A program made the translations under genes and the position numbers. The notes under the pieces are model-generated. The model saw only the letters and a program-made list of their open reading frames with translations, ran no database searches and was not told the origin of the DNA. Positions 23,439 through 55,652 of a stretch of DNA of 64,000 nucleotides are shown here, piece by piece. Source of the DNA: Cystobacter ferrugineus (lineage in GTDB: Bacteria; Myxococcota; Myxococcia; Myxococcales; Myxococcaceae); NCBI RefSeq assembly GCF_001887355.1, contig NZ_MPIN01000001.1:1139785-1203784 (forward strand), read 5' to 3'. Within the stretch, counting starts at the first letter, position 1. The number at the start of each line of letters is the position of its first letter.

Positions 23439-23449
23439 TCAAGGGAGGC

Positions 23450-25576: not shown

Positions 25577-25585
25577 GGGATGAGC

Positions 25586-25680
25586 TCCATCAGGTTGTTC
25601 GAGCAGGACCGCCGGAGCACCCTACCCGAAAACCCAGGGGCCATTCGTTCTCACTCCGTGAGATTCGTCTCCGCGAAGAC
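25586..25680. repeat. 95-bp direct repeat, copy 1
   Basis: Begins TCCATCAGGTTGTTCGAGCA. It matches 27958-28052 in the same orientation with three substitutions and two single-base indels. This copy lies directly upstream of the GH114-like gene start. With copy 2 it brackets the epoxide hydrolase and LysR genes. Confidence 0.9.
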
Positions 25681-25821
25681 GTGCCGGTCGTAGACACGCT
25701 ACTGGCGGAGGCGAGCCACCTTCTCGTCCAATGACAGGCAGGGACTGTTCGGTGGCTCCACGCGGACGATCTGCATGCACGAATGTTGAATGCGGTTGAA
25801 CATTCGTGCAACGGGCAGCGG

Positions 25822-27015: not shown

Positions 27016-27033
27016 CCATTCACATTTGAATGG
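27016..27033. promoter_or_regulatory. Inverted repeat at the epoxide hydrolase/LysR divergent promoter
   Basis: CCATTC-ACATTT-GAATGG, perfect 6-bp arms, overlaps the LysR start codon at 27030. Its inner part ATTC-N6-GAAT is the kind of interrupted dyad LysR regulators bind, so autoregulation and control of the divergent hydrolase gene are plausible. Confidence 0.45.
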
Positions 27034-27956
27034 CCTCCTCGTCTCCGGATTGGTCCCTCTATCGCTCGTTCATCGCCGTGCTGCGGGAGGGCTCGCTCTC
27101 GGCGGCCGCCAGAGCGCTGGGGCTCAGTCAACCCACGCTCGGCCGGCATATCGCGTCGCTCGAGAGCGCACTCGGGGTGGCTCTCTTCACCCGGTCACCC
27201 GATGGCCTCGTACCGACCCTGGCCGCCGAAGCGCTCCGCCCCGAGGCCGAGTCGCTCGCCGCCGCGGCCGACGCCCTGCTCCGGACCGCGTCGGGCTCGC
27301 TGAAGGAGAACGCCGGCACGGTGCGGCTCACCGTGAGCGAGGTGTTCGCCGCCGAGGTGGTCGCGCCGATCCTGTCCCGCATGCAGGCCGACCACCCGCG
27401 GATCCTCGTGGAGGTGGCCGTCTCCAACCGGAGCGATGATCTCCTCCGGCGCGAGGCCGACATCGCCGTACGACTGGTGCGGCCGAGCCAGGACGCGCTC
27501 GTGGCGACGCGGGTGGGCGAGGTCGAGCTCGGTCTCTTCGCACACCCCTCCTATCTCGCGCGCCGCCCTGTGCCCCGGTCAGTGGCCGAGCTCGAGGGCC
27601 ACGCGCTGGTCGGGTTCGATCGCGGCGCTCCGTACACGCGCACGCTCCAGCTCGAAGGCCGGCCCCTCACGCGCGAGCAGTTCACGTTCCGCTCGGACAA
27701 CGACCTCGCTCAGCTCGCGGCGATCCGGGCGGGTTGTGGCATCGGTGCCTGTCACGTTCCGCTCGCCCATCGTTCGGGCCTCGTCCGCGTCCTGCCCTCG
27801 GCATTCGCGCCCACCGTCGAGATGTGGGTCGCCATGCATGAAGATCTGCGGACGACCGCGCGGTATCGGACCGTCTTCGATGCGCTCACCGCCGGACTGA
27901 AGGACTACCTCCGCGAGCCGGCGAGGCGTCCTCACCGGCAGCTCCGCAAGCGCTAG
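27030..27956 (+). CDS. LysR-family transcriptional regulator
   Basis: 308 residues. The N-terminal winged helix-turn-helix is clear: YRSFIAVLREGSLSAAARAL then SQPTLGRHIASLE. A periplasmic-binding-like effector domain follows (AEVVAPILSRMQADHP and LVRPSQDALVATRVGEVELG). It most likely regulates the divergent epoxide hydrolase in response to a small ligand. No Shine-Dalgarno is visible before the ATG, so translation may be leaderless or weak. Its stop is one base before repeat copy 2. Confidence 0.9.
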   Translation: MASSSPDWSLYRSFIAVLREGSLSAAARALGLSQPTLGRHIASLESALGVALFTRSPDGLVPTLAAEALRPEAESLAAAADALLRTASGSLKENAGTVRLTVSEVFAAEVVAPILSRMQADHPRILVEVAVSNRSDDLLRREADIAVRLVRPSQDALVATRVGEVELGLFAHPSYLARRPVPRSVAELEGHALVGFDRGAPYTRTLQLEGRPLTREQFTFRSDNDLAQLAAIRAGCGIGACHVPLAHRSGLVRVLPSAFAPTVEMWVAMHEDLRTTARYRTVFDALTAGLKDYLREPARRPHRQLRKR

Positions 27957-27957
27957 G

Positions 27958-28052
27958 TCCATCAGGTTGTTCGAGCAGGACCGCCGGAGCACCTACCCGA
28001 AAACCCAAGGGGCCATTCGTTCTCACTCCGTGCGATTCGTCACCGCGGAGAC
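27958..28052. repeat. 95-bp direct repeat, copy 2
   Basis: Same orientation and about 95 percent identity to 25586-25680. It starts one base after the LysR stop codon. The two copies are 2372 bp apart, so recombination between them would excise the epoxide hydrolase and LysR genes as a unit. Confidence 0.9.
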
Positions 28053-28296
28053 TCGCCTGGCATCCCGGCTGAACCACGCCGCCCCCTGCGAGTGCGTCCC
28101 ATGTCGAGCCGGTCCGGCTCGGAGCACTGCCCGGCACCTTCCGGCAGGCAGGGCCAGCAAGGTCGTACTCCCCCCAAGCGGGGGAGCAGGAGGCAAGCGT
28201 GGCGCCGCCCGGCGGCGTCACAAAAAAAGGCGCGGCGACTCCATCCCTGGTGTTGAGGGCAACTTGAAACAGCCTTGAGCTAGGGAGCAGAGGAGT
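28053..28296. other. Gene-free region before the lipid cluster
   Basis: Holds a perfect palindrome (28105-28121), a CTCCCCC/GGGGGAG stem near 28170 and a G+C-rich stem followed by an A-run near 28225. No gene was seen. The promoter of the desaturase operon must lie here. Confidence 0.4.
28105..28121. promoter_or_regulatory. 17-bp palindrome upstream of the lipid cluster
   Basis: CGAGCCGG-T-CCGGCTCG, 8-bp perfect arms around one base, 175 bp upstream of the first desaturase gene. It could be an operator or part of an RNA stem; nothing more can be shown. Confidence 0.3.
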
Positions 28297-29301
28297 ATGT
28301 CACACCTTCATGAGGATGTTGGCATCGACCACCCATCGGTGGCTTCTCGAGCGAGGATTGCCATGGCGAACTCCCCCGAGCAGGCAAGACTCGATCAACT
28401 CCTGGCCGTCATTGTCACGGTGGTTCCAACCCTGGGAACAATTGCCGCGGGAGTGTTATGGTGGACTGGCCATGCTCCAGCAGCGCCGGAATTGATCACC
28501 GCCGCGATCCTATACATCATCACTGTCATTGGACTGGAAGTCGGTTTCCATCGGCATCTGGCTCACCGGGCATTCCAAGCGCGTCCAGGCTTGCGCGCGG
28601 CGCTCCTCGCGGCGGGCTCCATGGCCTTCCACGGGCCCGCCATCTGGTGGTGCGCGATCCACCGGCGCCATCATACGCTGAGTGATCTGGAGGGAGATCC
28701 GCACTCTCCCAGGCTCTCTGGAGATGGCGCCTGGGGAAAGTTGAAAGGCTTCTTTCACAGCCACATGGGTTGGCTCTTCACGGCGGGCTCGACACGGCCC
28801 GAGAACTGGCGCGACCGGGTCCGGGACCTCTACGAGGATGAGCTGGTCCTGCGCCTGCACCTGCAATATTATGCATGGTTGTTCCTGGGCCTGCTCATTC
28901 CCGCCGCGGTCAGCGGGTTCGTGCACGGCAGCCTGTCCGGCGCCCTGATGGGCTTCCTCTGGGGCGGCATGGTTCGCATTTTCCTCGTGAATCAGTGCAT
29001 CTGGTCGCTCAACTCCTTGTGCCACCTGATCGGGAAGCCCTATTTCAGCACCCGGGACCACAGCAAGAACAGCTTCATCCTGGCGTTGTTCACCTTTGGC
29101 CAGGGCTGGCACAACAACCACCATGCATTCCCAAGCTCCGCCTATACAGGGCTCAGGTGGTGGCAGATCGACTTCGGAGGGTGGGTCGTCTGGACGCTGA
29201 AATCCACGAGGCTCGTCTGGGACGTGCGCAAGCCAACCCCGGAGATGATCGCCCTCAAAGCTCTCTACAAAAAACCAAGCACTCGGGAGGATCCACCTTG
29301 A
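28297..29301 (+). CDS. Membrane fatty acid desaturase (type 1), first of two
   Basis: 334 residues, several membrane spans, and the three His boxes of the di-iron membrane desaturases: HRHLAHR, HRRHH and HNNHH. These enzymes use O2 and electrons from a carrier to place a double bond (or, in acetylenases, a triple bond) in a fatty acyl chain. A GGGAG lies nine bases before ATG 28297. Its stop overlaps the TTG start of the carrier protein gene, so desaturation of an ACP-bound chain is plausible. No ferredoxin or rubredoxin gene is nearby. Chain position and product are unknown. Confidence 0.88.
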   Translation: MSHLHEDVGIDHPSVASRARIAMANSPEQARLDQLLAVIVTVVPTLGTIAAGVLWWTGHAPAAPELITAAILYIITVIGLEVGFHRHLAHRAFQARPGLRAALLAAGSMAFHGPAIWWCAIHRRHHTLSDLEGDPHSPRLSGDGAWGKLKGFFHSHMGWLFTAGSTRPENWRDRVRDLYEDELVLRLHLQYYAWLFLGLLIPAAVSGFVHGSLSGALMGFLWGGMVRIFLVNQCIWSLNSLCHLIGKPYFSTRDHSKNSFILALFTFGQGWHNNHHAFPSSAYTGLRWWQIDFGGWVVWTLKSTRLVWDVRKPTPEMIALKALYKKPSTREDPP

Positions 29302-29561
29302 GCAATCCAACAATCGCCCAGACGCAGTCCGCTGACAGCCGTGCGTGGATGTGTAACTACCTGGCCAGGAAGCTGGGGGTCACGCCCGAGCAGGTGGACA
29401 CGAAGAAGACGTTCGACAGTTTCGGACTCGACTCGGCCGAGGCCGTGCGAATGGTCGGAGACCTGGAGGACTTCGTCGGCCGCAAGCTTTCTCCCAGCCT
29501 GCCCTTCAAGTACCCGACCATCGAGGCCCTTTCGCAGCACCTGGATGCGGGCAAGCACTGA
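29298..29561 (+). CDS. Stand-alone acyl carrier protein
   Basis: 87 residues from the TTG at 29298, which has GGGAGG seven bases upstream and overlaps the desaturase stop as TTGA. The 4'-phosphopantetheine site is FGLDSAEAV, with the Ser as attachment point. Helices on both sides (FDSFGLDSAEAVRMVGDLED and LPFKYPTIEALSQHL) are typical of ACPs. It probably carries the fatty chain loaded by the acyl-AMP ligase at 32435 and presents it to the desaturases and methyltransferase. Confidence 0.9.
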   Translation: MSNPTIAQTQSADSRAWMCNYLARKLGVTPEQVDTKKTFDSFGLDSAEAVRMVGDLEDFVGRKLSPSLPFKYPTIEALSQHLDAGKH

Positions 29562-29600
29562 TCGCGTCATTCATTCCTCAACCGGGACAGGAGCCTGGCC

Positions 29601-30485
29601 ATGACAACCAGCGGTGCACAGGCGCAGGTGGGCGCCTCCAAGGAATCCATCCAGTACCACTACGATATTGGGAATGACTTCCTGGCCCTCGCGCAGGAAG
29701 AGACCCGCACGTACTCGTCCGCCATGTGGGAGGACGGGGACACACACGAGCAGGCGCAGATCCGCAAGCTGGACTACCACATCGCGCAGATCCGCGCGGA
29801 GGGAGCCGAGCGGGTCCTCGACATCGGCTGCGGCTGGGGCTCGCTGATGAAGCGGCTGGTGGTGAACCACGGCGTCAAGAAGGTCGTGGGGCTCACGCTC
29901 AGCCAGGAGCAGGAGAAGTACATCCACCAGGCGATCGGGCTGCCGCGGATCGAGGTGCGGCTGGAGAACTGGCAGGACTACCAGCCGAGCGCGCCGTTCG
30001 ACGGCATCATCTCCCTGGGAGCCTTCGAGCACTTCGCGAAGATCGACGAGGACAAGCTCGAGGCGTACCGGCGCTTCTTCGAGCGCTGCTACGGCTTTCT
30101 CAAGCCCGGCGGCCGCATGTCCCTGCAGACCATGGCCTACGGCGACGTCCCCCGCGACCGCAAGCACAAGGACCTGTTCATTGCCCGCGAGGTGTTCCCC
30201 GAGTCGGACCTGCCGTACCTGGCCGACATCGTCCGCTCCAGCGAGATGCTCTTCGAGGTCGAGTTCCTGCGCAATGACCGGCACGACTACGTCAAGACGA
30301 TGCGGGCCTGGTTCGAGAAGCTGCGCGGCAACCGCGAGAAGGCGCTGAAGCTGGTGCCCCTCGAGGTGATTGAGCGCTACGAGCGGATGTATCGGACGAT
30401 GAGCTACTCGTTCGACCTGGGGGCTTTCCACCTCTACCGCATCACCTTCCGGCGCATCGAACCCAACCGTTTCGGCAAAGACTGA
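29601..30485 (+). CDS. Cyclopropane-fatty-acid-synthase-like SAM methyltransferase
   Basis: 294 residues, with AGGAG eight bases before the ATG. The SAM loop VLDIGCGWGSL and the acyl-enzyme motif GAFEHF match the CFA/mycolic acid cyclopropane synthase family, and SIQYHYDIGNDFLAL is the conserved N-terminal helix. It lacks the ~90-residue N-terminal domain of E. coli Cfa and so resembles the short mycobacterial enzymes. It should transfer a methyl(ene) group from SAM to a double bond, giving a cyclopropane or methyl branch. Its place between two desaturases suggests it acts on their product. Confidence 0.87.
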   Translation: MTTSGAQAQVGASKESIQYHYDIGNDFLALAQEETRTYSSAMWEDGDTHEQAQIRKLDYHIAQIRAEGAERVLDIGCGWGSLMKRLVVNHGVKKVVGLTLSQEQEKYIHQAIGLPRIEVRLENWQDYQPSAPFDGIISLGAFEHFAKIDEDKLEAYRRFFERCYGFLKPGGRMSLQTMAYGDVPRDRKHKDLFIAREVFPESDLPYLADIVRSSEMLFEVEFLRNDRHDYVKTMRAWFEKLRGNREKALKLVPLEVIERYERMYRTMSYSFDLGAFHLYRITFRRIEPNRFGKD

Positions 30486-30498
30486 TCCCCGTGCCCCC

Positions 30499-31458
30499 AT
30501 GAGCGAAAACGTCTCGGCCGCGGCCCTCTCTGGCTCAGGAGGCGATGCGCGGCTTTCCAAGTCATCCCTGCTGCGCCACGGCCTCGTCATCCTCGTGCCC
30601 GTCTTCGGGACGTGCGCGGCCCTCTACCTGTGGTGGAGCGGGCTCGCGGTGCCGAAGACGGCGGACTTCATCCTGCTCGGGGTGTTCTACGTCCTGAACA
30701 TCCTCGGGATGGAGCTGGCCTACCACCGCTACTTCGCGCACCGGTCCTTCCGGGCTCCCCGCGCGGTGGAAATCGCCCTGGGGGTGCTCGGCTCCCTGGC
30801 GTACGTGGGACCGATCATCTGGTGGGTCGCCATCCACCGCATCCACCACAAGAACACGGACCACGAGGGGGATCCGCACTCGCCCTGGTGGCCCCGGTAT
30901 CCAGGCCGCCTCCGGCGGCTGTACCACGCCCACGTGGGGTGGCTCCTGGATGCCCGATGCGCCCGCCCGGAGCAGTGGGGCCAGTATGCGATGGACCTGT
31001 ACAAGGACCCGATCCTGTTCAAGTTCCACATGATGTACGACTACTGGCTGGTGCTCGGCCTGGCGCTTCCGGCGGCCATCGGCGGCCTCATGCATGGCTC
31101 GCTCCAGGGGGTGCTGCTCGGGTTCCTCTGGGGGGGCACGGTGCGCGTCTTCCTCGCCACCAACGCCATCTGGAGCATCAACTCCTTGGGGCATGCGCTC
31201 GGAGGGCGCAGCCCCCTGCGGAGCCGTGACAACAGCCGCAATTCCTTCTGGCAGGCCATCGTCACGCTCGGCGCGGGCTGGCACAACAACCATCACACCT
31301 TCCCTTCCTACGCCATCACCTCTCTGCGCTGGTGGCAGGTCGACCTGACGGGCCTGCTCATCCGGGCCCTTGCGCTCGTCCGGCTCACGCGGGACGTGCA
31401 TCTGCCCAACCCGGCCTCCGTGGAAGCCAAGAAGAAGAAACCCCTGGCGACGACCTGA
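30499..31458 (+). CDS. Membrane fatty acid desaturase, second of two
   Basis: 319 residues, paralogous to the product of 28297-29301. His boxes HRYFAHR, HRIHH and HNNHH are all intact, as are the hydrophobic spans (LVILVPVFGTCAALYLWW and others). The second copy may act at a different chain position or make a second unsaturation in the same chain. It starts 13 bp after the methyltransferase stop and ends 5 bp before the amidohydrolase start, so it is in the same operon. The Lys-rich tail KKKKPLATT is distinctive. Confidence 0.88.
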   Translation: MSENVSAAALSGSGGDARLSKSSLLRHGLVILVPVFGTCAALYLWWSGLAVPKTADFILLGVFYVLNILGMELAYHRYFAHRSFRAPRAVEIALGVLGSLAYVGPIIWWVAIHRIHHKNTDHEGDPHSPWWPRYPGRLRRLYHAHVGWLLDARCARPEQWGQYAMDLYKDPILFKFHMMYDYWLVLGLALPAAIGGLMHGSLQGVLLGFLWGGTVRVFLATNAIWSINSLGHALGGRSPLRSRDNSRNSFWQAIVTLGAGWHNNHHTFPSYAITSLRWWQVDLTGLLIRALALVRLTRDVHLPNPASVEAKKKKPLATT

Positions 31459-31463
31459 TCCTC

Positions 31464-32438
31464 ATGACCACGCGAGAACTTCCCGCTACTTCACCTCGAG
31501 CACCGCGCGCCTTCGACGTGCACGTGCACCTCTTTCCCGGCATGCTGGCGCGCTTCATCTGGAAGTGGTTCGAGGAGAACGCCTGGCAGATCCGGCACAA
31601 GCCCACGCCCGAGGAGACGTTCGATCTCCTCGCGCGCTACGGCATCGAGCGCATGGTCGGGCTCTGCTACACGCACCAGCCCGGCCTCGCTGGCATGCTC
31701 AATGACTTCATGGCGGAGTTGGTGGCCGCCCATCCCGAGCGGCTCGTTGGCTTCGGCACCGTCCTGCCCGGTGAAGAGGGATTCGAAGCAGAGGTCCAGC
31801 GTGCGCTCGGGGAGCTCAATCTCTCTGGGATCAAGATCCACTGCCACGTGCAGAAGATCGCACCGGACGACGACCGCATGTTGCCCGTATTCGATGCCAT
31901 CGCGGAGACGGGCAAGGTCCTGCAGATCCACTGTGGCCCGGTCTCGGAGAGCAACGCCCATAAGCACGAGATCGACGATCTGTGCGCCGTTCCCCGCTTC
32001 GTGCGCGCCATGCGGCGCACGCCGGACATCAAGGTGATCGTGCCCCACATCGGGTATGACGAGGTCCAGCTCTACCTCGACATGTTGGATGAGTTCCCGA
32101 ACCTCTACCTGGATACGGCCATGGCATTCGGGGGGTATCGCGTGGCCCGGGGAGAGGCGCTTCCGGACGTTCGGCCCCTCGCGCTGGCGCGTTATGAGAA
32201 GGGCCAGAAGCCGCGCCTGCCCGAGCTTTGGAAGCCCGCGCTCGAGCAGCTCGTTCCGCAAATCATGGAACGACCGGAGCGGTTCCTGTTCGGCACCGAC
32301 TTTCCCAACCTTCCGTACGACCCCGACCTGGAGATGCGCGAGTTGGAGCGCTACCTGCCTGAAGACGTGCTGCGCCAGGTGCTCTGGGACAACGCCGCCA
32401 GGCTCTTCGGGCCGGCGGAGAGGCAGGGACGCACATGA
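31464..32438 (+). CDS. Amidohydrolase-2 family metal-dependent hydrolase/decarboxylase
   Basis: 324 residues from ATG 31464. The N-terminal FDVHVHLF (HxH metal motif), IQIHCGPV-like strand (LQIHCGP), VPHIGYDE and FGTDFPN are the strand-end ligands of the amidohydrolase TIM barrel. The family holds C-C hydrolases and decarboxylases (ACMSD type) as well as amide or lactone hydrolases. In this operon it could remove a carboxyl group or cleave a lipid-derived intermediate. It overlaps the next start as ATGA, showing tight coupling with the acyl-AMP ligase. A second member of the family is encoded at 36483-37235. Confidence 0.82.
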   Translation: MTTRELPATSPRAPRAFDVHVHLFPGMLARFIWKWFEENAWQIRHKPTPEETFDLLARYGIERMVGLCYTHQPGLAGMLNDFMAELVAAHPERLVGFGTVLPGEEGFEAEVQRALGELNLSGIKIHCHVQKIAPDDDRMLPVFDAIAETGKVLQIHCGPVSESNAHKHEIDDLCAVPRFVRAMRRTPDIKVIVPHIGYDEVQLYLDMLDEFPNLYLDTAMAFGGYRVARGEALPDVRPLALARYEKGQKPRLPELWKPALEQLVPQIMERPERFLFGTDFPNLPYDPDLEMRELERYLPEDVLRQVLWDNAARLFGPAERQGRT

Positions 32439-34159
32439 ATACGGACAGACAGGCCTCACGGTTCGAGTCTCTCGCCGAACTCATCGAGCACCGCGGCACG
32501 GAGCAGCCGGACCTTGAAATCTACCGCTTCGTGGAGGACGGAGAGCGCGTCGTCGCGAGCCTGACGAGCGGGGAGCTGCTGAACAGGGTCCGCGGAATCG
32601 CCCGCCAGCTCGTGGAAGCCCAGCTCGTGGGTGAGCGGGCACTCCTTCTCTACCCGCCCGGGCTCGAGTTCCTCGTCGGGTTCGCCGCCTGCGTCTACGC
32701 GGGAGTGGTGGCGGTACCCGTGTACCCTCCAGACCCGGCGCGTCTGGAGAGGGCGCTGCCGCTCCTGCTGGGAATCATCCGCGACGCGAGCCCTCGCGCC
32801 ATCCTCGGCGACTCCATGACGCTGGAGCTGGCGCGCATGCTGACCAGCGAAATCGAGGACGCCGGCAAGAAGGTCTGGCTCGCAACGGACACGGTGGCCG
32901 AGGCGCCGGATGCCATGCGTGTGAGGCCGCCCACGGAAGAGAGTCTCGCGTTCCTGCAGTACACGTCGGGCTCCACGGGTGCTCCCAAGGGCGTGGCCCT
33001 GAGCCATGGAAACCTGCTCCACAACCTGTCTGTCATTCAAGCGCGGTTCGAGCACACACGCCAGAGCCAGGGAGTGATCTGGCTGCCCTCCTACCACGAC
33101 ATGGGCCTCATCGGCGGCATCCTGCAACCGCTGTACGCGGGGTTCCCCGTGGTGCTCATGTCACCGTTTGATTTCCTGAAGAAGCCCATCAACTGGCTGC
33201 GTGCGATCACCCGGTTCCGGGCGACCACCAGTGGTGGCCCCGCGTTCTCGTTCGACCTGTGCACCCGCGGCGTGCCGGACAGCGAACTCGGCACGCTCGA
33301 TCTCTCGTCCTGGAGCGTCGCGTTCGTCGGCTCCGACATGGTCCGTTGGCAGGGCCTGGACGCCTTCGCGAGGAAGTTCGCCCGCAGTGGCTTCCGCCTG
33401 GAGGCGTTCTATCCGTGCTACGGCCTGGCGGAGTCCACGCTGTATGTGTCCGGCGGCGACAAGGGCGCGGCGCCGGTGGTGCGTCCGAGTCCCGTCCACG
33501 ACGGCGAGCCGCAACTCATGGTCGGCTGCGGCAGAGCGGGCACGGACAGCGAGATCCGCATCGTCGATCCCGACTCATGCACGCCCATGGAAGAAGGACA
33601 GGTGGGCGAAATCTGGACGCGCGGCCCGAGCGTCGCGCGCGGGTACTGGGAGAACCCCGCGCAGACCGAGGAGATCTTCGGAGCCCGGCTGGTGGGCGAT
33701 GACTCCTGGCGCTATCTGCGGACGGGCGACCTGGGGTTCATCCGTGAAGGGGAACTCTTCGTCACCGGGCGCATCAAGGAAGTCATCAAGGTCCGGGGCA
33801 AGAACCACTTCCCCCGCGACATCGAGGTGACGGCCGAGGACAGCGATTCCCAGATGATACGCCGGGGCTGTTCGGCCGCGTTCGCCACGAACGATGACGC
33901 CGAGCTCGTCGTGGTCATCGAGGTGCGCAAGCCGGACGGAGGGGACGCGGCCCTGCCCATGGAGCGCGCCGCGGCGATCTGCGAGAACGTGCGCGCCGCC
34001 ATCACGGCGAAGCATGGCCTCTCCGTGGCGGGCGTCGTGCTGGTGCCTCCCGGCACCGTGCCGAAGACCTCCAGCGGCAAGGTTCGCCGTGTTGTCTGCA
34101 AGGACATGTTCCTCGGTGATGAGCTGCCCGTGCTCGGTGCATGGCGGCGCGGCGGGTGA
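32435..34159 (+). CDS. Fatty acyl-AMP ligase (FAAL)
   Basis: 574 residues. Adenylation motifs: YTSGSTGAPKGVALSH, YGLAESTLYVSGG, GDLGFI and the C-terminal KTSSGKVRR with the catalytic Lys. The segments YGLAESTLYVSGG and VGCGRAGTDSEIRIVDPDS are characteristic of FAAL enzymes, which make acyl-adenylates and pass the chain to a carrier protein, rather than CoA ligases. Likely role: activate a free fatty acid and load the ACP at 29298. It is the biosynthetic anchor of the cluster. ATG 32435 overlaps the previous stop. Confidence 0.9.
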   Translation: MNTDRQASRFESLAELIEHRGTEQPDLEIYRFVEDGERVVASLTSGELLNRVRGIARQLVEAQLVGERALLLYPPGLEFLVGFAACVYAGVVAVPVYPPDPARLERALPLLLGIIRDASPRAILGDSMTLELARMLTSEIEDAGKKVWLATDTVAEAPDAMRVRPPTEESLAFLQYTSGSTGAPKGVALSHGNLLHNLSVIQARFEHTRQSQGVIWLPSYHDMGLIGGILQPLYAGFPVVLMSPFDFLKKPINWLRAITRFRATTSGGPAFSFDLCTRGVPDSELGTLDLSSWSVAFVGSDMVRWQGLDAFARKFARSGFRLEAFYPCYGLAESTLYVSGGDKGAAPVVRPSPVHDGEPQLMVGCGRAGTDSEIRIVDPDSCTPMEEGQVGEIWTRGPSVARGYWENPAQTEEIFGARLVGDDSWRYLRTGDLGFIREGELFVTGRIKEVIKVRGKNHFPRDIEVTAEDSDSQMIRRGCSAAFATNDDAELVVVIEVRKPDGGDAALPMERAAAICENVRAAITAKHGLSVAGVVLVPPGTVPKTSSGKVRRVVCKDMFLGDELPVLGAWRRGG

Positions 34160-34202
34160 TAGGAAGCACACGACAATCCACACGCACCATCGCGGGGGAA
34201 CC

Positions 34203-34706
34203 ATGCCAGAAAGCACGAAGCCTGGAATCAGGAGCCGTACGGTTCATTGGGCGGACGTCCAGGAGATCGTGGCCCACGCCACGAAGGAGGATTATCTGCA
34301 GGGATGGGCCGAGGGCCGCTATCCTGCCCCTCCGATCTGCGATTCCATGGGGATCCGCTTGATCGAGGTCGGCCAGGGGCGCGCGGTGTTTACCGGGACT
34401 CCCGCCGAGTATCACTACAATCCGATGGGCACCGTTCATGGAGGGATGCTGTCCACGCTCATCGACAGCGCGTGTGGTATCGCCTGTATGTCATTGCTGC
34501 CGCATGGCACGCGGTGGACCACGGTCAACCTGAACGTCTCCTTCTTCAAGATGGTGACGGAGGCAACGGGGATCATCCGCTGCGAGGGAGTGGCCGTCCA
34601 TCAAGGACGCAAGATCGTGGTGGCCGATGCAACCATCCTCTCCCCGGACGGAGAGCAGATCGCCTCGGGCCGCGCCACCTGCCTGGTGCTCGACTCTTCC
34701 CGTTGA
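34203..34706 (+). CDS. Hotdog-fold thioesterase (PaaI-like)
   Basis: 167 residues from ATG 34203 (GGGGAA just upstream). The hotdog signature is YNPMGTVHGGMLSTLIDSAC, with the His-Gly-Gly and the acidic Asp on the central helix as in PaaI/4HBT thioesterases. VNLNVSFFKMV and ADATILSPDGEQIASGRAT complete the fold. It should hydrolyse an acyl-CoA or acyl-ACP thioester in the cytoplasm. Two further release-type genes follow, so this one may have a proofreading role. Confidence 0.83.
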   Translation: MPESTKPGIRSRTVHWADVQEIVAHATKEDYLQGWAEGRYPAPPICDSMGIRLIEVGQGRAVFTGTPAEYHYNPMGTVHGGMLSTLIDSACGIACMSLLPHGTRWTTVNLNVSFFKMVTEATGIIRCEGVAVHQGRKIVVADATILSPDGEQIASGRATCLVLDSSR

Positions 34707-34727
34707 GCCGCTGGGGAAAGAGGAGTC

Positions 34728-35633
34728 ATGATCAATGTCACCTGGATCGATAGCTTCCGGCTCCGTGCCCGCGCTGGCGGCATCAGGGACGGCTGGGCGG
34801 CGAGCACGCGCCCCGGAGTCGCGTTCCACGAGCTGCCCGAAGCCACGCTGAGATCGAGGACCGGAGGCACGCGCAAGGCAGGGGAACCCACGGTGGTGAT
34901 GGTGTGTGATCCGCCGAATGTCCTCGAGCACTTCGATGCGGTGTTCGAGAGGTTCTCGCCGCACGGCCGGGTGATCGTCTTCGAGCCGCCCGGGTTCGGG
35001 TTCTCGCTCCCGAGCGCCTCCTTCCGCTTCACCTTCGACGAGTATCGTGCCTGTATCGAGGGCTTGTTGCGGAAGCTGGATGAAGGGCCGTATGTGCTCG
35101 CCTTCACCTGTGTATGGGCACACATCGCGCTCCAGGTCGCGGCGAAGGAGCCGGGGATGATCGCGAAGCTGATGCTCTGGCAATCACCCTCGTGGGCCCA
35201 GCAGGTCACCTGGGCCAGGGAGGTGGACAAGAAGAAGGTCATCTCGCGCCCGGTGCTCGGGCAGGTGATGACGGCGTTGAAGCCGGAGAAGATCGGACTC
35301 GGGTGGTACAGGGCAGCGTTGGCCAAGAACCGGTATCCCGACTTCATGCCCACGCTGGAGCAGGCCCTGAAGCGGGGGGCCTTCTGTTGCCTGGGCTCGT
35401 TGTGGCAGCAGTGGTTCCACGGGTACACGCCACCGCCTGTCCGGGTGGAGCAACCGGCGCTGGTGACCTGGGGCCTGGCGGACCGCACGCATGCGCGCAG
35501 CGACAAGGAATCCATCGGAAGCCAGCTCGCCCACGCGAAGTGGCACAGCTTCCAGCACGCGGGGCACTCTCCTGAGCTGGAGGCGAGCCAGGAGTATTGC
35601 GAGCTCCTCCGGGGTTGGCTCCAGGAGGACTGA
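34728..35633 (+). CDS. Alpha/beta hydrolase-like protein with altered nucleophile elbow
   Basis: 301 residues with the alpha/beta hydrolase layout: VIVFEPPGFGFS (oxyanion region), a nucleophile-elbow position reading AFTCVWAH, an acid loop TWGLADRTH and the His loop QHAGHSPELE. The elbow normally reads GxSxG; here Cys replaces Ser and both flanking glycines are replaced. So it may be a Cys-nucleophile enzyme, a lyase-type member or a non-catalytic binder. It lies in the lipid operon between two thioesterases and could release, cyclise or bind the acyl product. Confidence 0.7.
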   Translation: MINVTWIDSFRLRARAGGIRDGWAASTRPGVAFHELPEATLRSRTGGTRKAGEPTVVMVCDPPNVLEHFDAVFERFSPHGRVIVFEPPGFGFSLPSASFRFTFDEYRACIEGLLRKLDEGPYVLAFTCVWAHIALQVAAKEPGMIAKLMLWQSPSWAQQVTWAREVDKKKVISRPVLGQVMTALKPEKIGLGWYRAALAKNRYPDFMPTLEQALKRGAFCCLGSLWQQWFHGYTPPPVRVEQPALVTWGLADRTHARSDKESIGSQLAHAKWHSFQHAGHSPELEASQEYCELLRGWLQED

Positions 35634-35668
35634 GCGTTCGGGTCTCCCCAGCGCTCATTGGAGGCCTT

Positions 35669-36526
35669 ATGTCAGAGACTCCGGTCACCGAGTTGGAGCT
35701 CGTTGCCCGTAGCTACGAGGTGGATGCCGGCCTGGAGCTGAAGCCGCTCACCTACATGAACTGGCTTCAGGAGATCGCATGGGAAGCAGCCGCCGCCGGG
35801 GGGGTGCCTCCCCAGTGGTTCCTGACGCGCGACATCGCGCCCGTGTTCAGCGTCTCCCGCTTCGAGAAACAGCATCCCATCCGCTATGGGGACCGCATCA
35901 TTGCCCGAACGTGGTTCTCGAAGATGGAGGGCTCCCTGGCCCACCGGGAGTACGAACTGCGCCGCGCGAAGGACGGCAAGGTGGTTCTTCACGGCCGCAC
36001 GGAGATCATCCTGGTGAACCTGCGCACCCGTACCCCGACCGACTGGGGTGAGCTCGTCGATCGGTTCAAGCCCAATGGGGTGTCCTTCTACAAGCAATAC
36101 GAGCCCGCGGCGGTGACGCCGGTCATGGAGACAGTCTCCTTCCAGGTAGAGCGGCTCGTGCAGCCCGAGGAGATCGACATGGCCCGGCACGTCAACAACG
36201 GATTCTATCTGCGTTGGATGACGGATGCGCTGTACTCCTTCCTTCAGCCCGCGCTGGGCGACAAGACGGATGAAGCCCGCCTTCAGTCCGTCCTCCTGAA
36301 GTTCGGCTCCCCCATCACCCTGGGGCAGGACGTGCTCATCTCCGGCCAGTTGGCGGGGGTTGGAGACGACATCAGCCGTTGGAGCTTCCAGGTGGCCCCT
36401 GTGTCTGGCAGCCGCAGGCCCGCGTCCGCGGAGCTGACCTTTCGCTGGGCCCCGGAATGGAGCGCTCTGCTGAAACCACGGGTCAGTGCAGATGGAACAG
36501 CCTCTGGACGTTGGCGCCGAGGATGA
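35669..36526 (+). CDS. Double-hotdog acyl-ACP thioesterase-like protein
   Basis: 285 residues from ATG 35669 (GGAGG just upstream). It contains two hotdog domains in tandem. The first has YMNWLQEIAWEAAAAGG, HPIRYGDRIIARTW and ILVNLRTRTPTDW. The second opens with EIDMARHVNNGFYLRWMTDA, the typical D-x-x-x-H-V-N-N-x-x-Y motif. This is the FatA/FatB or YbgC-pair architecture. It would hydrolyse acyl-ACP to free acid. It is the last plus-strand gene of the cluster; its 3' end overlaps the convergent gene by 44 bp. Confidence 0.82.
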   Translation: MSETPVTELELVARSYEVDAGLELKPLTYMNWLQEIAWEAAAAGGVPPQWFLTRDIAPVFSVSRFEKQHPIRYGDRIIARTWFSKMEGSLAHREYELRRAKDGKVVLHGRTEIILVNLRTRTPTDWGELVDRFKPNGVSFYKQYEPAAVTPVMETVSFQVERLVQPEEIDMARHVNNGFYLRWMTDALYSFLQPALGDKTDEARLQSVLLKFGSPITLGQDVLISGQLAGVGDDISRWSFQVAPVSGSRRPASAELTFRWAPEWSALLKPRVSADGTASGRWRRG

Positions 36527-37235
36527 GGTCTCGCTCGGCCTCGGACACGGGCAGCAGGCAGATCTTCTTGAGCTCCAGCCCCGGGTGGGACATGGGGAAC
36601 TCGGAGCCGAAGACAATCTTGCTCGCGCCCGTCTTCTTCACCGTCTCCTGCAGGCGCAGGAAGGTGCCCAGGGACGTCTCCAGGAAGAGGTTGTCGAGGC
36701 TCGCGGCCGCATCCACCACGTCCATGTCCGCCTGGAGCCCGCCCATGTGCTCGAGGAGGAAGCACGTCCTGGGGAAGCGCCGGGCGAGCTGGATGAAGTC
36801 TCCAGGGGTCACCCCCGGCCGGAATCCGGTGTGGGAGACGAGCGGAATGTCCCGCTCGCCACAGAGCGCCGCGAGCGCCGCCACGCACTCGTCCAGGAAC
36901 GAGAACGGGTGGACGAGGGGGCTCACGAGCAGGCCCCGGAAGCCCCGGGACACCCATTCCTCCAGAGCCTCCGGGGCGTGCGGCAGGCGCGGGTCCAGGC
37001 ACGCCACGGCGGCCAGCCCGGGATGGGCGAGCACGGCTTGCTGGATGTAGTCATTGCAGGGGATGGGATCGGCCTGGCGCCTGCCGGAGGTGAATTCGCC
37101 CAGCCGGCGGACATCCACCATGCCCCCTGGACAGACGAGGCCCTGCTTGATGCCGCTGAGATCCAACTGCGAGAGGTAGTGCTCCACCGAGCCATAGGGC
37201 TTGGGGCACAGATGCGCGTGTGCGTCGATGATCAT
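36483..37235 (-). CDS. Amidohydrolase-2 family hydrolase
   Basis: 250 residues, with AAGGAG eight bases before the ATG. Metal motifs: MIIDAHAHL (HxH), IPLVSHTGF, CFLLEHMGG and FGSEFPMSH; the last has Glu where the usual motif has Asp (GSD). TIM-barrel C-C hydrolase or decarboxylase fold, cytoplasmic. It is smaller than the family member at 31464. It is on the opposite strand, converging on the lipid operon with a 44-bp overlap, and likely co-transcribed with the PaaK-like gene upstream. Substrate unknown. Confidence 0.8.
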   Translation of the reverse strand: MIIDAHAHLCPKPYGSVEHYLSQLDLSGIKQGLVCPGGMVDVRRLGEFTSGRRQADPIPCNDYIQQAVLAHPGLAAVACLDPRLPHAPEALEEWVSRGFRGLLVSPLVHPFSFLDECVAALAALCGERDIPLVSHTGFRPGVTPGDFIQLARRFPRTCFLLEHMGGLQADMDVVDAAASLDNLFLETSLGTFLRLQETVKKTGASKIVFGSEFPMSHPGLELKKICLLPVSEAERDLILGANVQRLFHLH

Positions 37236-37266
37236 GCCGCGACTCCTTTCTGGGGTGGGACCGCCC

Positions 37267-38571
37267 TCACTCGCGCACGACGCGCAGGGCCTTGGCGCTC
37301 GTGCGGGGCAGGTGCTCGACGAACTCGATCTCCAGGGGCAGGCGCGTGAAGAACTCCATCCTGCTGGCCAGCGTGCTGCCCAGCTCCCGGGAGGGCCGCA
37401 CCCCGGTGGCGGGCTCGCACCGGACCTTGATGCGGGCGGTGTCCGAGGCGGGCACGACGAAGTGGAACCAGTTGCCCACCTCGGGCATGCGCATGAGGAA
37501 TTCCTCCAGGAAGATGGGCGACACGCTCTGGCCCCGGTACTGGAGTTGCTCGAAGGTCCGGCCGCGCACGCGGAAGCGGCTCGCCGTGGCGCCGCAGGTG
37601 CACGTGCCCTCCTCGAACACTCCCAGGTCCCCGGTACGAAAGCGCAGCAGGGGACTGTCGTGGCGCAGCAGCGCCGTCACGACGAGCTCTCCCACCGAGC
37701 CCGGGGGCAGGGGCTCCCCGGTGTCGGGGGCCACCACCTCGAGCAGGGTGTGGCCCTGGGTCAGGTGGTAGCCCTGGCGGGCCTCGCACTCCACGCCCAT
37801 CATTCCGCCCTCCAGTGAGCCATAGAGGAAGAAGGCAGCGCAGCCCCAGAGCGCCTCCACGCGCCGCCGGAAGGCGGGAGAGCAACCCTCGCCGGTGAGC
37901 CACATCCTCCGGGGGGCCATCGACGGCAGGGAGAGGCCTTGTCTGGCCGCTTCCTCCGCCAGGGCGATGGCCCACGACGGACTGGTGATGACGATGCTGG
38001 GACGAAGGTCCCGGAAGACCTTGAGGGTCTTCGCGGGCGTGGAGTACGCGCCGCCCTTTCCGGCGGCGATTACCGTGGCCTGGCAGTTCTCGGTGAACTC
38101 CCGGTGCATGGCCAACCCCGCGGTGCTCATTTCATAGGGCAACGCATTGAGACACACGTCTCCCGTGGTGACCGGGAGCAGCGAGGGATAGTGGGCGGAC
38201 AGGTGGTATTGCAGATCCAACCGGCTCTGGGCGCTGTAGATCTCCTCGCCGCCACTCGTGCCCGTGGAGACCTGGATGATCATGACGTCCCGGCGCTCGC
38301 AGGTGAGCAGACGCCAGGGGTGCCCGTGCAGTTCCTCCTTGGTCAGGAAGGGCAGGCGCGGGAGATCCTCCAGGCCACGGATACTTCCAGGGCGGATGCC
38401 CGCCCGCTCCAGCTTCTCCCGGTAGAAGGGCGAGGCCTCCTGGGCCCGGGTGGCCACGGCACGCAGGGCCGCGGACCGATAGTCTTTCAATGTCTCGGGT
38501 TGCATCCGCTCTGCTTGTCTCAACTCCGAGGCATGGCGGGAGATGACCGTGGCGAGTCTCGATGTGTCCAT
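37267..38571 (-). CDS. PaaK/CapK-like adenylate-forming ligase
   Basis: 434 residues from ATG 38571; a TTG at 38607 would add 12 residues. The P-loop-like STGTSGGEE, the LYGSLEGG region, FRTGDLGVFEEGTCTCG and the C-terminal LPRTSAKALRVVRE are those of phenylacetate-CoA ligase relatives. It should activate a carboxylic acid as an adenylate and transfer it to CoA or another acceptor. It lies 31 bp upstream of the amidohydrolase on the same strand; the two probably form an operon. Whether they serve the neighbouring lipid pathway is an inference from position. Confidence 0.82.
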   Translation of the reverse strand: MDTSRLATVISRHASELRQAERMQPETLKDYRSAALRAVATRAQEASPFYREKLERAGIRPGSIRGLEDLPRLPFLTKEELHGHPWRLLTCERRDVMIIQVSTGTSGGEEIYSAQSRLDLQYHLSAHYPSLLPVTTGDVCLNALPYEMSTAGLAMHREFTENCQATVIAAGKGGAYSTPAKTLKVFRDLRPSIVITSPSWAIALAEEAARQGLSLPSMAPRRMWLTGEGCSPAFRRRVEALWGCAAFFLYGSLEGGMMGVECEARQGYHLTQGHTLLEVVAPDTGEPLPPGSVGELVVTALLRHDSPLLRFRTGDLGVFEEGTCTCGATASRFRVRGRTFEQLQYRGQSVSPIFLEEFLMRMPEVGNWFHFVVPASDTARIKVRCEPATGVRPSRELGSTLASRMEFFTRLPLEIEFVEHLPRTSAKALRVVRE

Positions 38572-38744
38572 GCCTCGCAACGTGTGAATGGCACAGACAT
38601 GGATCAAGGACCCCGGACGCCGTCTGGAATCCAGGCATACGAGCCCGCCAATGGCTGTCGGCCAGGGAAGCGCTGCTTGGGGATGTCTGCAGCGGATTGG
38701 ACGGGAGCCCAGGACCGGTGCGAAGCTCCCGCGCGACTCACACT

Positions 38745-39869
38745 TCAGGGAGTGTAGATCTCCACCGTGTCGAGTGACTCATTATTGCCCTCGTACCCTC
38801 CCGCGACGAGCACCTCACCCGACGGCAACAGCGTGGCCGTATGGGAGGAGCGCGAGTGCGCCAGGGAACCCGCGCTCGTCCAGACCCCGCTGGCCGGGTC
38901 ATACAGCTCCGCCTGGGCGCTGCCTCCGCCCACGACGAGCACCTGGCCCGACGGCAACAGCGTGGCCGTATGGGAGGAGCGCGAGTGCGCCAGGGAACCC
39001 GCGCTCGTCCAGACCCCGCTGGCCGGGTCATACAGCTCCGCCTGGGCGCTGCCTCCGCCCACGACGAGCACCTGGCCGGAGGGCAGCAACGTGGCCGTAT
39101 GGCCAGCGCGAGGCGTCAACATGGAGCCGGTCGGCGTCCAGGTGTCGGTGCTCGGGTCGTACACCTCCGCGTCGGCGTAGTCGCCCGAGTAGCCGCCGCC
39201 CGAGAGGAGGACCTTTCCCGAGGGCAGCAGCGTCAGGGCCGGCTGCATGAGGAGCCGGGAGGTATCCCGGGCGCGGCTCCAGATGCCCGTCGCCGGATCG
39301 TACAGCTCCGCGAAGCCAGGACCGTTGGGGTTGTTGGCAACACCCCCCACCACGAGCACCTGGCTCGAGGGCAAGAGCACCGCCTGGACGTTTTGTCTCT
39401 GGAAGTGCATGGAGCCGGTGGGCGTCCAGACGCCGGTGGTCGCGTCATAGAGATCCGCCGTGTTCGAGAACGGACCATGCCCCATGCTCAGGAGCTTGCC
39501 CGTGGGAAGCAACACGGCGGCGTGGGTGACGCGTGGCTCATTCATGGAACCGGTGGATGTCCAGGTGCCCGTGGCTGGATCATAGAGTTCGGACGAACTC
39601 AGGCTCCTTGACAGGTCCGGAGCGTTGGGATTGTAGCCACCGGCTACAATCACCTGCCCGGAGGGAAGCAGGGCCGCCGCGTGGCCGGTGCGGGCCGTGT
39701 TCAGGGGGGCCGTGGAGCGCCAGGTCTGATGGGCCGGGGGCGTCTCGGAGCCGCTCCCCCCGCCAGGGGCGGCCGGTGGCACGACTCCCAGGAAATTTCC
39801 ATCGATGCATCCCGTGGTGAGGGCCAACGACAGAACAATGCCGCATCCAGCGCGAGCGACGAGCCTCAT
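38745..39869 (-). CDS. Kelch-repeat lipoprotein
   Basis: 374 residues with GAGGGAG before the ATG. Signal peptide with lipobox LTTGC, then a Gly/Ser/Pro linker and about six kelch blades. Each blade has LLPSGQVLVVGG followed by AELYDPASGVWTSAGS-type sequence. Such beta-propellers are common on myxobacterial surfaces and probably bind glycans or proteins. Two adjacent blades are encoded by a perfect 129-bp tandem duplication (38818-39075), showing recent repeat expansion. Confidence 0.85.
   Translation of the reverse strand: MRLVARAGCGIVLSLALTTGCIDGNFLGVVPPAAPGGGSGSETPPAHQTWRSTAPLNTARTGHAAALLPSGQVIVAGGYNPNAPDLSRSLSSSELYDPATGTWTSTGSMNEPRVTHAAVLLPTGKLLSMGHGPFSNTADLYDATTGVWTPTGSMHFQRQNVQAVLLPSSQVLVVGGVANNPNGPGFAELYDPATGIWSRARDTSRLLMQPALTLLPSGKVLLSGGGYSGDYADAEVYDPSTDTWTPTGSMLTPRAGHTATLLPSGQVLVVGGGSAQAELYDPASGVWTSAGSLAHSRSSHTATLLPSGQVLVVGGGSAQAELYDPASGVWTSAGSLAHSRSSHTATLLPSGEVLVAGGYEGNNESLDTVEIYTP
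38818..38946. repeat. 129-bp perfect tandem repeat, unit 1 (inside kelch gene)
   Basis: Identical by eye to 38947-39075, directly abutting. 129 bp equals 43 codons, one kelch blade, so the frame is kept. Confidence 0.9.
38947..39075. repeat. 129-bp perfect tandem repeat, unit 2 (inside kelch gene)
   Basis: Second copy; sequence diverges from unit 1 immediately after 39075 (CCGGAGGG against CCCGACGG). Confidence 0.9.
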
Positions 39870-40492
39870 GTGTGAACTCCCTCGGTGGGCCAGAATCCTT
39901 GCCGCGGTAGTCTACACGAAAAACCCCGCGCGATACTCATTGTGCATTTTTCCCTCGCGAATCCGTCCAACCCAAAATTTTTCTTTGGACTGCACGGGGT
40001 GCGACAAGCCATCTGTCATGAGAATCAGAATCCCAGCCATCATTGAAAAGGACAGACAGTCGGTTGTCTTGTCTTTCTCTCGAAATGGGGTCGTTCATGC
40101 GCTCAACATGCGCGAGCGGGGGGGGGCCGGAAGTGTGATTGTTCACGGGAAAAGTAGCATGAGAATGCTGTCAGGGGATTTGGAGCAATCTCGGTCTTTC
40201 CAGCGAGTCTTGGGAAAGCGATCACCGGATGACTCCTGGCCCGCTTGCATGGTGGTCAGGTGCCGGGAGAGGTCGTCATTCGGCCCATCGCCGTAGAACG
40301 TCCGGGGCTCGAACCTTGCTCCCGCATCCATGTAGACCGTGGCGAGGGAGAGCCGTGGTGGAATGGCTCCAGGCGCGCCTCCACGGTACGTGGGCCATCC
40401 GCGCCCCGGACACTTGTGCTTCCAGCACCCGGAGCTGGGCATTCCCGTGCCGCACATCGCGGCGGGAGAACATCGACGAGGGCGCCAGTCCG
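39870..40492. other. 623-bp stretch without a supported gene
   Basis: Contains a block of lower G+C at about 39915-40110 (runs such as CCCAAAATTTTTCTTTGG) and then normal G+C. Open frames exist on both strands, but none shows a recognisable domain, a signal peptide or a good ribosome site. It may be old coding debris. The kelch gene promoter should be near 39900. Confidence 0.4.
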
Positions 40493-55625: not shown

Positions 55626-55652
55626 CCCTCCCGTGGATTGGAGCGACGCGCG

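What the first reader, a model, noticed from the sequence alone, without database searches (positions are those of the whole stretch)
28297..38571. PKS-free lipid pathway built on FAAL, ACP, two membrane desaturases and a CFA-type methyltransferase
Seen: desaturase, TTG-start ACP, CFA-like methyltransferase, second desaturase, amidohydrolase, FAAL, hotdog thioesterase, odd alpha/beta hydrolase and double-hotdog thioesterase on one strand, with stop/start overlaps (TTGA, ATGA) and gaps mostly of 40 bp or less, followed by a convergent PaaK-like ligase and amidohydrolase. Known: FAAL-ACP-desaturase trios make terminal alkynes (JamABC) and polyynes (cay-type clusters). Inference: a free fatty acid is loaded on the ACP, desaturated or acetylenated, methylated or cyclopropanated, then released. 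The combination with a cyclopropane-synthase-like enzyme and two amidohydrolases, without any PKS or NRPS, is not a pathway I recognise.
Basis: partly seen in the sequence, partly recalled or inferred. Interest (0 to 1): 0.78.

Follow-up and report, generated by a model that had tools for sequence, protein, structure and literature searches.

The report
Carrier-bound fatty acid methylation operon
This soil bacterium carries a self-contained nine-gene operon, shared with some Burkholderia but not found in its closest relatives, that probably loads a fatty acid onto a small carrier protein, adds double bonds and a methyl group, and releases it as a lipid whose identity is still open.

Summary
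Window 28297-36526 (+) is a tight operon: desaturase, ACP, CMAS-family methyltransferase (MT), desaturase, amidohydrolase, FAAL, hotdog, alpha/beta hydrolase, acyl-ACP thioesterase. All nine genes are collinear in two other myxobacteria; the first eight in seven Burkholderia loci and the first seven in a contig-truncated eighth. The convergent PaaK/amidohydrolase pair does not belong: two congeners carry it elsewhere without the operon.

The two desaturases are sister paralogues grouping, weakly, with polyyne desaturases, but the polyyne rubredoxin and third desaturase are missing. The MT belongs to an ACP/FAAL-linked family that elsewhere stands beside PKS, P450 or homoserine-lactone-synthase genes. 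All 28 members examined have Gln where four mycobacterial relatives have His (bicarbonate-binding, recalled), as hydroxymycolate synthase MmaA4 does. I therefore favour carrier-bound alkene methylation over cyclopropanation, at moderate confidence. The hydrolase has an invariant Cys nucleophile; the amidohydrolase resembles non-hydrolytic decarboxylases.

Prior art: Burkholderia versions appear to be in print as an "alkyne cassette" clade and as B. pseudomallei BPSS2037-2040 (transcript table). Ten searches of an open-licence library found no product. New variant of a known kind.

The parts
28297..29301 (+). des1: membrane fatty-acyl desaturase with full His boxes (HRHLAH, HRRHH, HNNHH)
   Evidence: PF00487 1.4e-17; His boxes; sister paralogue of des2, 98/96; 54-57% identity to 9 Burkholderiales loci
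29298..29561 (+). stand-alone acyl carrier protein, TTG start, phosphopantetheine motif GLDSAEAV
   Evidence: PF00550 4.1e-13; DS pair kept in 21 of 21 other ACPs printed
29601..30485 (+). MT: CMAS/CFA-family SAM methyltransferase with Gln176 in place of the bicarbonate His
   Evidence: PF02353 5e-61; best PDB sequence hit MmaA4 3.3e-39; Gln in 24 of 24 family rows and 4 of 4 further plasmid loci; 75-79% identity to 9 Burkholderiales loci
30499..31458 (+). des2: second membrane desaturase, sister of des1
   Evidence: PF00487 6.8e-18; tree
31464..32438 (+). AH1: Amidohydro_2 protein, ACMSD / 5-carboxyvanillate-decarboxylase type fold
   Evidence: PF04909 8.3e-32; AF2 model pLDDT 77.8, best Z 23.9 to an unassigned amidohydrolase-fold protein, decarboxylases at 19-21; aligned with 11 orthologues
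32435..34159 (+). FAAL: stand-alone fatty acyl-AMP ligase
   Evidence: PF00501 2.4e-57 and DIP2-like C-domain 1e-12
34203..34706 (+). single hotdog (PaaI-type) thioesterase
   Evidence: PF03061 1.7e-13; TIGR00369; 33-40% in 9 Burkholderiales loci
34728..35633 (+). abh: alpha/beta hydrolase with Cys128 at the nucleophile elbow, Asp252 and His280
   Evidence: invariant in 11 of 11 rows; AF2 model pLDDT 77.6 puts residue 128 between a strand (122-127) and a helix (129-140); Z 26.4 to an epoxide hydrolase
35669..36526 (+). TE: double-hotdog acyl-ACP thioesterase; last 15 or so residues read into the neighbouring AH2 block
   Evidence: PF13279 and PF01643; found in the 3 myxobacterial loci, 0 of 9 Burkholderiales loci; tail comparison
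36481..36481 (.). junction: DNA from here to 38689 matches two congeners at another place

Best explanation
The nine genes 28297-36526 are a horizontally transmitted, self-contained pathway for modifying a free fatty acid while it is bound to a dedicated carrier protein. Proposed steps: (1) TE, or simple scavenging, supplies a free fatty acid; (2) FAAL adenylates it and loads it on the ACP; (3) des1 puts in a cis double bond; (4) the Gln-type MT methylates that alkene with SAM, and because the bicarbonate-binding His is replaced, the cation is not closed to a cyclopropane but ends as a methyl-branched alkene or methyl-alcohol, like UfaM or MmaA4 products; (5) des2, a duplicate of des1, desaturates next to the branch (as UfaD does after UfaM) giving a methyl-diene or enyne; (6) AH1, of the decarboxylase/hydratase kind, does one further lyase-type or hydration step, or is a remodelled enzyme whose role is open; (7) the Cys-nucleophile alpha/beta hydrolase releases or transfers the acyl group, with the PaaI-type hotdog as an editing thioesterase. 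Shown: gene set, conservation, family assignments, residue changes, different placement in congeners. Inferred: order of steps, substrates, product.
For: Gene set and tight spacing. Collinear conservation: nine genes in L032 and L033; eight in L011 and L066-L071 of Burkholderia; seven in contig-truncated L010, with an abh piece on another contig of that genome; six in order plus displaced hotdog and abh in L009. Flanking genes are not shared between the phyla, nor between L032 and L033, in a blastp of called ORFs. FAAL assignment. No ketosynthase in the window and the 11 other loci of this type; L009 has an A-PCP-aminotransferase protein beside the operon. MT: 28 of 28 members of its family have Gln at the position where CmaA2, PcaA, MmaA2 and UmaA have His and MmaA4 has Gln; three of three more distant Streptomyces relatives (34-36%), with an ACP-like gene but no FAAL found beside them, have His. 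Precedent UfaM then UfaD: SAM methylase on an alkene, then a desaturase giving a methyl-diene (PMC7380195, abstract and passages). des1 and des2 are sister paralogues (98/96) that split before the two phyla's copies. abh Cys128/Asp252/His280 invariant in 11 of 11.
Against: MmaA4's extra Glu (SIEAFEHF) is Gly in this MT, as in the cyclopropane-type enzymes printed, and the Glu143 and Tyr230 counterparts are kept. [quoted passage not shown] A distant CFA-like protein of the own genome (27%) also has Gln and scores best against a cyclopropane-synthase model, below its cut-off, so Gln may not exclude cyclopropanation. No substrate, product or activity is known. AH1 has lost the first His of HxH (Arg) in 9 of 9 Burkholderiales rows, so its chemistry is unclear. 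Which enzyme releases the chain is not settled. Step 1 by TE cannot be general, since TE was not found in 9 of 9 Burkholderiales loci.
Confidence: 0.5

Rival explanations
1. The MT is a true acyl-ACP cyclopropane synthase: the pathway makes a cyclopropane fatty acid (or cyclopropyl-alkene/alkyne) on the ACP.
For: CMAS family (PF02353 5e-61); Glu143, Tyr230 and the Gly of SLGAFEHF as in cyclopropane-type enzymes.
Against: The bicarbonate His is Gln in 28 of 28 members of the family examined.
Confidence: 0.25
2. It is at heart an alkyne pathway of the JamABC kind: des1 and des2 make an acetylenic chain and the MT is a side decoration.
For: FAAL, desaturase and ACP present; des1 and des2 group, weakly (89/77), with polyyne desaturases and one PKS-type desaturase, and far from the own genome's ordinary desaturase; the Burkholderia relatives seem to have been filed as an alkyne-cassette clade.
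Against: No rubredoxin and no third desaturase in the cluster; the MT is the best conserved protein of the operon (median 77% against 34-56% for the other seven), which does not look like a side role; JamB itself was not available for comparison.
Confidence: 0.15
3. The cassette only prepares a starter acyl-ACP that is handed to a PKS or NRPS elsewhere in the genome.
For: Relatives of the des-ACP-MT core sit beside ketosynthase genes in L020, L034, L036, L042, L043 and L074; the own genome has many adenylation-domain genes (76 matches).
Against: None of the 12 loci of this subtype (window included) has a ketosynthase within the stretch held, and the subtype carries its own hydrolase.
Confidence: 0.07
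4. It is a degradative or housekeeping lipid gene set (PaaK and amidohydrolases as aromatic-acid catabolism).
For: A PaaK-like ligase and ACMSD-type amidohydrolases lie next to each other.
Against: AH2-PaaK is separable; the operon is patchy: the close MT is in 3 of 195 Myxococcota genomes and in 0 of 3 congeners.
Confidence: 0.03

Closest known systems
Burkholderia 'alkyne cassette' basal clade (PMC8406139) and B. pseudomallei BPSS2037-BPSS2040 (PMC4236580)
   Same: Burkholderia loci found here carry the same genes in the same order as the window; BPSS2037-2040 are listed as desaturase, ACP, cyclopropane-fatty-acyl-phospholipid synthase, desaturase.
   Different: No product is reported in what I read; the identity of those published loci with mine is inferred from annotation and species names, not from sequence. 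The myxobacterial copies add a double-hotdog thioesterase and keep HxH in AH1.
Polyyne clusters (cepacin, caryoynencin, collimonin, protegencin type)
   Same: FAAL, ACP, two or more related desaturases, thioesterase-type enzyme.
   Different: No rubredoxin and no third desaturase; has MT and AH1.
Mycobacterial mycolic acid methyltransferases, especially MmaA4/Hma
   Same: Same family and similar length, Gln at the same position; the mycobacterial enzymes act on carrier-bound chains (recalled).
   Different: MmaA4's second Glu is Gly here; no mycolate pathway is seen around it.
UfaM/UfaD of furan fatty acid synthesis (PMC7380195)
   Same: SAM methylase on an alkene followed by a desaturase.
   Different: There it acts on phospholipid chains; here a dedicated FAAL and ACP are present. 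The UfaM sequence was not compared, and UfaO was not sought.

Membership tests
FAAL | closest relatives are FAALs rather than CoA ligases | tested here: met
   6 of 18 PDB matches bear AMP- or adenylate-ligase names; the best four are named polyketide synthase or saframycin synthetase and are FAAL structures as I recall; seven of the eight best NCBIfam models are AMP-ligase/FAAL models, below cut-off. Acyl transfer to ACP rather than CoA is not testable here.
JamABC alkyne cassette | FAAL, membrane desaturase and ACP genes in one cluster | tested here: met
JamABC alkyne cassette | desaturase of the JamB clade / makes a terminal alkyne | not testable with these tools
   JamB sequence not at hand; polyyne desaturases were the nearest published kind available
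seven-gene polyyne cassette (as defined in PMC8406139) | rubredoxin gene | tested here: not met
   motif scan of the window and 18 loci gave rubredoxin-like ORFs only in L072 and L073; hits in L066, L068, L076 lie in a UvrA-like ORF (by eye), and one in L043 is spurious; L010 and L011 were not scanned, but L076 covers the place of L011
seven-gene polyyne cassette (as defined in PMC8406139) | three desaturases | tested here: not met
   two in the cluster; the own genome holds one more match, on another contig
seven-gene polyyne cassette (as defined in PMC8406139) | thioesterase | tested here: met
   three candidate releasing enzymes
cyclopropane synthase (CFAS/CmaA) | CMAS family | tested here: met
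   PF02353
cyclopropane synthase (CFAS/CmaA) | bicarbonate-binding His (role recalled) | tested here: not met
   Gln176; Glu143 and Tyr230 kept
MmaA4-type hydroxylating methyltransferase | Gln at that position | tested here: met
MmaA4-type hydroxylating methyltransferase | second active-site Glu (Glu146) | tested here: not met
   Gly140 in all 24 family rows
furan fatty acid pathway | UfaO-type oxygenase | not tested
   UfaO sequence not fetched or sought
ACMSD/decarboxylase-type amidohydrolase (AH1) | fold | tested here: met
   Z 19-24 to ACMSD, 5-carboxyvanillate and dihydroxybenzoate decarboxylases, pyrone-dicarboxylate hydrolases and unassigned amidohydrolases
ACMSD/decarboxylase-type amidohydrolase (AH1) | HxH...H...H...D metal ligands (recalled) | tested here: inconclusive
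   complete in 3 of 3 myxobacterial rows; RxH in 9 of 9 Burkholderiales rows, the other ligands invariant

The most novel reading that the evidence does not exclude
A so far undescribed class of natural lipids: fatty acids that are desaturated, methyl-branched at a former double bond (not cyclopropanated) and desaturated again while on a dedicated ACP, then released by a Cys-dependent hydrolase. It would be one branch of a wider, transferable ACP-Gln-methyltransferase cassette that other bacteria plug into PKS lines, P450 tailoring, or acyl-homoserine-lactone signal synthesis.
Probability: 0.4. Interest if true: 0.72.

Novelty: new variant of a known kind. Interest (0 to 1): 0.55.

Why it matters
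PMC8406139 places 4,013 of 4,990 JamA-type sequences in a Burkholderia-only clade of presumed alkyne makers, found through three genes. If that clade is this cluster, the label may be wrong: the best-conserved enzyme is a methyltransferase with a changed active site. The gene order gives a small, portable operon without megasynthases in which the question 'what does a Gln-type CMAS enzyme make on an acyl-ACP?' is directly testable, and the myxobacterial copies allow this in harmless hosts.

Tried and rejected
Rejected: AH2 and PaaK as parts. The LysR gene 27030-27956 as a cluster regulator: LysR genes also stand beside the P450-type clusters L021 and L090, but identity is only 32% over 115 and 22% over 139 residues, and no match was found in the 10 operon loci tested. 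Polyyne membership. An AMP-binding ligase gene upstream of des1 in L067, L069 and L070 as a core part: it is in 3 of the 12 loci of this subtype only. A link to the antifungal AFC-BC11 cluster (passages of PMC12186527: 'cyclopropane' does not occur in the text) and to imidacins (part 1 of 3 of PMC11301661: cyclopropane, but urocanate plus a type I PKS). Ten paper searches gave no product for this cluster; in the FAAL review PMC11837247 (passages) 'cyclopropa' does not occur; the library holds open-licence papers only. Zhu et al. 2015 on the B. pseudomallei locus is not held and is known to me only through PMC8406139.

Led nowhere or limited: the plasmid collection held no close relative (12 records, best 52%; 10 of the 12 places were read, H11 and H12 were not); one genome-contig scan gave only three loci because it needs exact peptide patterns. 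The desaturase tree used 8 of the 11 other loci of this subtype and dropped matches under 200 residues. The fold searches compare folds, not functions.

Changed on re-reading: the count of fully collinear Burkholderia loci (seven), of ACPs printed (21), the naming of the PDB FAAL matches, the MT count (28), the ACP-like gene beside the Streptomyces relatives, and the tested absence of ketosynthases.
Full report
What is there. The window lies at G000:C1:1139785-1203784 of a 12.05-Mb, 42-contig genome. Names are withheld; that it is a myxobacterium is my reading of genome size and gene content, and my guess from size is Cystobacter, both untested. Nine + strand genes from 28297 to 36526 form one block with gaps of -4 to 43 bp. 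Families were assigned by Pfam and NCBIfam. AH2 and a PaaK-like ligase converge on it from the - strand.

Conservation and boundary. tblastn of each gene against fetched loci shows the nine-gene order kept in two other genomes of the same family, at 80-93% identity (L032, L033). In Burkholderiales, des1-ACP-MT-des2-AH1-FAAL-hotdog-abh is collinear in seven loci, L011 and L066 to L071. L010 has the first seven and its contig ends there; the same genome has an abh piece at the start of another contig. L009, a Burkholderiales MAG, has the first six in order, with hotdog and abh upstream on the other strand. The TE is in the 3 myxobacterial loci and was not found in 9 of 9 Burkholderiales loci. 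L076 is the same place as L011 and was left out of counts. No ketosynthase is detected in the window or the 11 other loci of this subtype. Flanking called ORFs are not shared between L032, L033 and the Burkholderia loci, except that L067, L069 and L070 share an AMP-binding ligase and other genes upstream.

Distribution. The MT at E <= 1e-45 occurs in 6 of 195 genomes of the window's phylum: own, G094 and G095 with the full operon, and three with MTs of 46-50% identity in other contexts. The three congeners show only distant CFA-like hits of 26-29%. In 399 genomes drawn evenly from the order of B. ubonensis, 4 have an MT at that threshold, and only the centre genome G197 has the close (77%) one. 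In 61 genomes of its genus, 19 have a des1 relative at E <= 1e-35, and 8 have one of 55-57% with a second desaturase about 2.3 kb away; two of these 8 (G196, G197) were known beforehand.

Placement. In congeners G001 and G002, blocks matching window 23403-25695 and 40492-41692 (96-97%) are only 2.1-2.3 kb apart, without the operon. The block 36481-38689 (AH2-PaaK) is 94-96% identical at another place (6 Mb away in G002, another contig in the draft G001). The match begins inside the 3' end of TE, whose window version is 285 residues against 270 and 273 in the other two myxobacteria. So AH2-PaaK is a separate unit and the operon's right end is a junction. The third congener, G003, was not compared at this level.

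Carrier loading. The ACP carries the motif GLDSAEAV and its DS pair is kept in 21 of 21 other ACPs printed.

Desaturases. Both have complete His boxes. In a tree of 40 rows (window plus 8 of the 11 other loci of this subtype, and other kinds), des1 and des2 are sister groups (98/96), each splitting into myxobacterial and Burkholderiales branches. With polyyne desaturases and one PKS-type desaturase (L034) they form a weakly supported group (89/77). The own genome's only other hit is an outgroup. The pair thus duplicated within this cluster lineage before the copies of the two phyla parted.

Methyltransferase. It is a 294-residue CMAS protein, best PDB sequence match MmaA4 (3.3e-39). In the alignments printed, CmaA2, PcaA (entry 1l1e, named mycolic acid synthase there), MmaA2 and UmaA have His in the LLHT motif and MmaA4 has Gln. 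All 24 family rows and four further plasmid loci (L089, L090, L092, L093) have Gln; 27 of these 28 lie beside an ACP and/or FAAL gene, L044 has neither found on its 9.8-kb contig. Three Streptomyces plasmid relatives (34-36%; L091, L094, L095) have His; they have a FAS/PKS-type setting with an ACP-like gene, and no FAAL was found beside them. The Glu and Tyr of the site are kept. That the His, Glu and Tyr hold bicarbonate is recalled from the CmaA1 and CFAS literature. [quoted passage not shown] The MT is by far the best conserved protein between phyla: median 77% against 34-56% for the other seven. The 12 MTs of this subtype are one clade (100/100).

Other contexts of the same core. ACP and MT with FAAL and/or desaturase genes stand beside ketosynthase genes (L020, L034, L036, L042, L043, L074), beside a P450 (L021, L045, L090; L021 and L090 also with an annotated alpha/beta hydrolase), beside an ADH and a type II thioesterase (L035), and beside an acyl-homoserine-lactone synthase (L022). 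No FAAL was found in the 20 kb of L036. This is a modular cassette, and the AH1 subtype is one of at least two PKS-free forms, the P450 form being the other.

Release and AH1. abh has Cys128, Asp252 and His280 invariant in 11 of 11 rows, and its AF2 model puts residue 128 at the strand-helix elbow (pLDDT 77.6), on an alpha/beta-hydrolase fold (best Z 26.4). AH1 models (pLDDT 77.8) onto amidohydrolases of the ACMSD and benzoate-decarboxylase kind (Z 19-24). Its first HxH His is Arg in 9 of 9 Burkholderiales rows but kept in 3 of 3 myxobacterial rows, so I do not assign a reaction.

Prior art. PMC8406139 (section 5 read whole, other passages) places 4,013 of 4,990 JamA-type FAALs in a Burkholderia-only basal clade including B. 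pseudomallei, B. thailandensis and B. ubonensis, and notes that an earlier study used the wrong FAAL for the B. pseudomallei locus, the genuine one lying downstream. PMC4236580 (passages) lists BPSS2037-2040 as desaturase, ACP, cyclopropane-fatty-acyl-phospholipid synthase and desaturase, about 3-fold repressed by BsaN; a search for the tags BPSS2037-2042 found no other paper. My identification of those loci with this cluster rests on gene order and species, not on sequence.

Verdict. A real, conserved, transferable operon; partly known by name in Burkholderia; product unknown to me; mechanism committed to above with confidence 0.5, the PKS-free carrier-bound fatty-acid modification as such being much safer (about 0.85).

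Noticed in passing
L022:8896-12776 (Sphingobium indicum plasmid pSRL2); L089:4890-8651: An acyl-homoserine-lactone synthase gene (PF00765 3.7e-25) directly followed by an ACP, a Gln-type MT and a FAAL, with a P450 nearby: it suggests a signal molecule with a specially modified, carrier-loaded acyl chain. Sphingobium sp. TomMM15 has the same layout, where the first gene is annotated hypothetical.
   Followed up: partly
L009:5213-8506: A 1098-residue A-PCP-aminotransferase class I/II protein directly upstream of the operon in a Burkholderiales MAG; it could condense the acyl chain with an amino acid.
   Followed up: partly
L045:5614-11813; L090:4671-11298; L021:10779-16658: A second PKS-free form of the cassette with desaturase, ACP, Gln-type MT, P450 and FAAL; L021 and L090 also have an annotated alpha/beta hydrolase and a PaaI thioesterase near. 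The B. ubonensis genome G197 carries both forms.
   Followed up: partly
L067:16658-18316; L069:2412-4217; L070:1676-3334: An AMP-binding ligase (90-91% alike) lies upstream of des1 in three Burkholderia loci only; it may be the kind of gene once taken for the FAAL of the B. pseudomallei locus (PMC8406139).
   Followed up: partly
window 25583-25685 and 27955-28057: A 103-nt direct repeat (87% identical) brackets an epoxide hydrolase and LysR gene pair just upstream of the operon; one copy lies in sequence shared with congeners.
   Followed up: partly
window 38797-39183: Tandem 129-nt repeats (97% and 68% to the reference copy) inside a Kelch-repeat gene; DNA matches to this gene are numerous in the genus.
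   Followed up: no
window 23403-25695, 40492-41692, 52315-56033: These blocks lie near or next to each other in congeners G001 and G002, so much of this window is a mosaic of insertions and rearrangements.
   Followed up: partly
window 36481-38689: AH2-PaaK is a gene pair found in two congeners, with a 70% alike copy elsewhere in the own genome (G000:C2:401249-403250).
   Followed up: partly
L020:5486-11846 (Polaromonas JS666 plasmid 2): The FAAL-desaturase-ACP-MT-desaturase-PKS cluster on this plasmid, typed as conjugative, is split by an ISL3 transposase gene between FAAL and desaturase.
   Followed up: no
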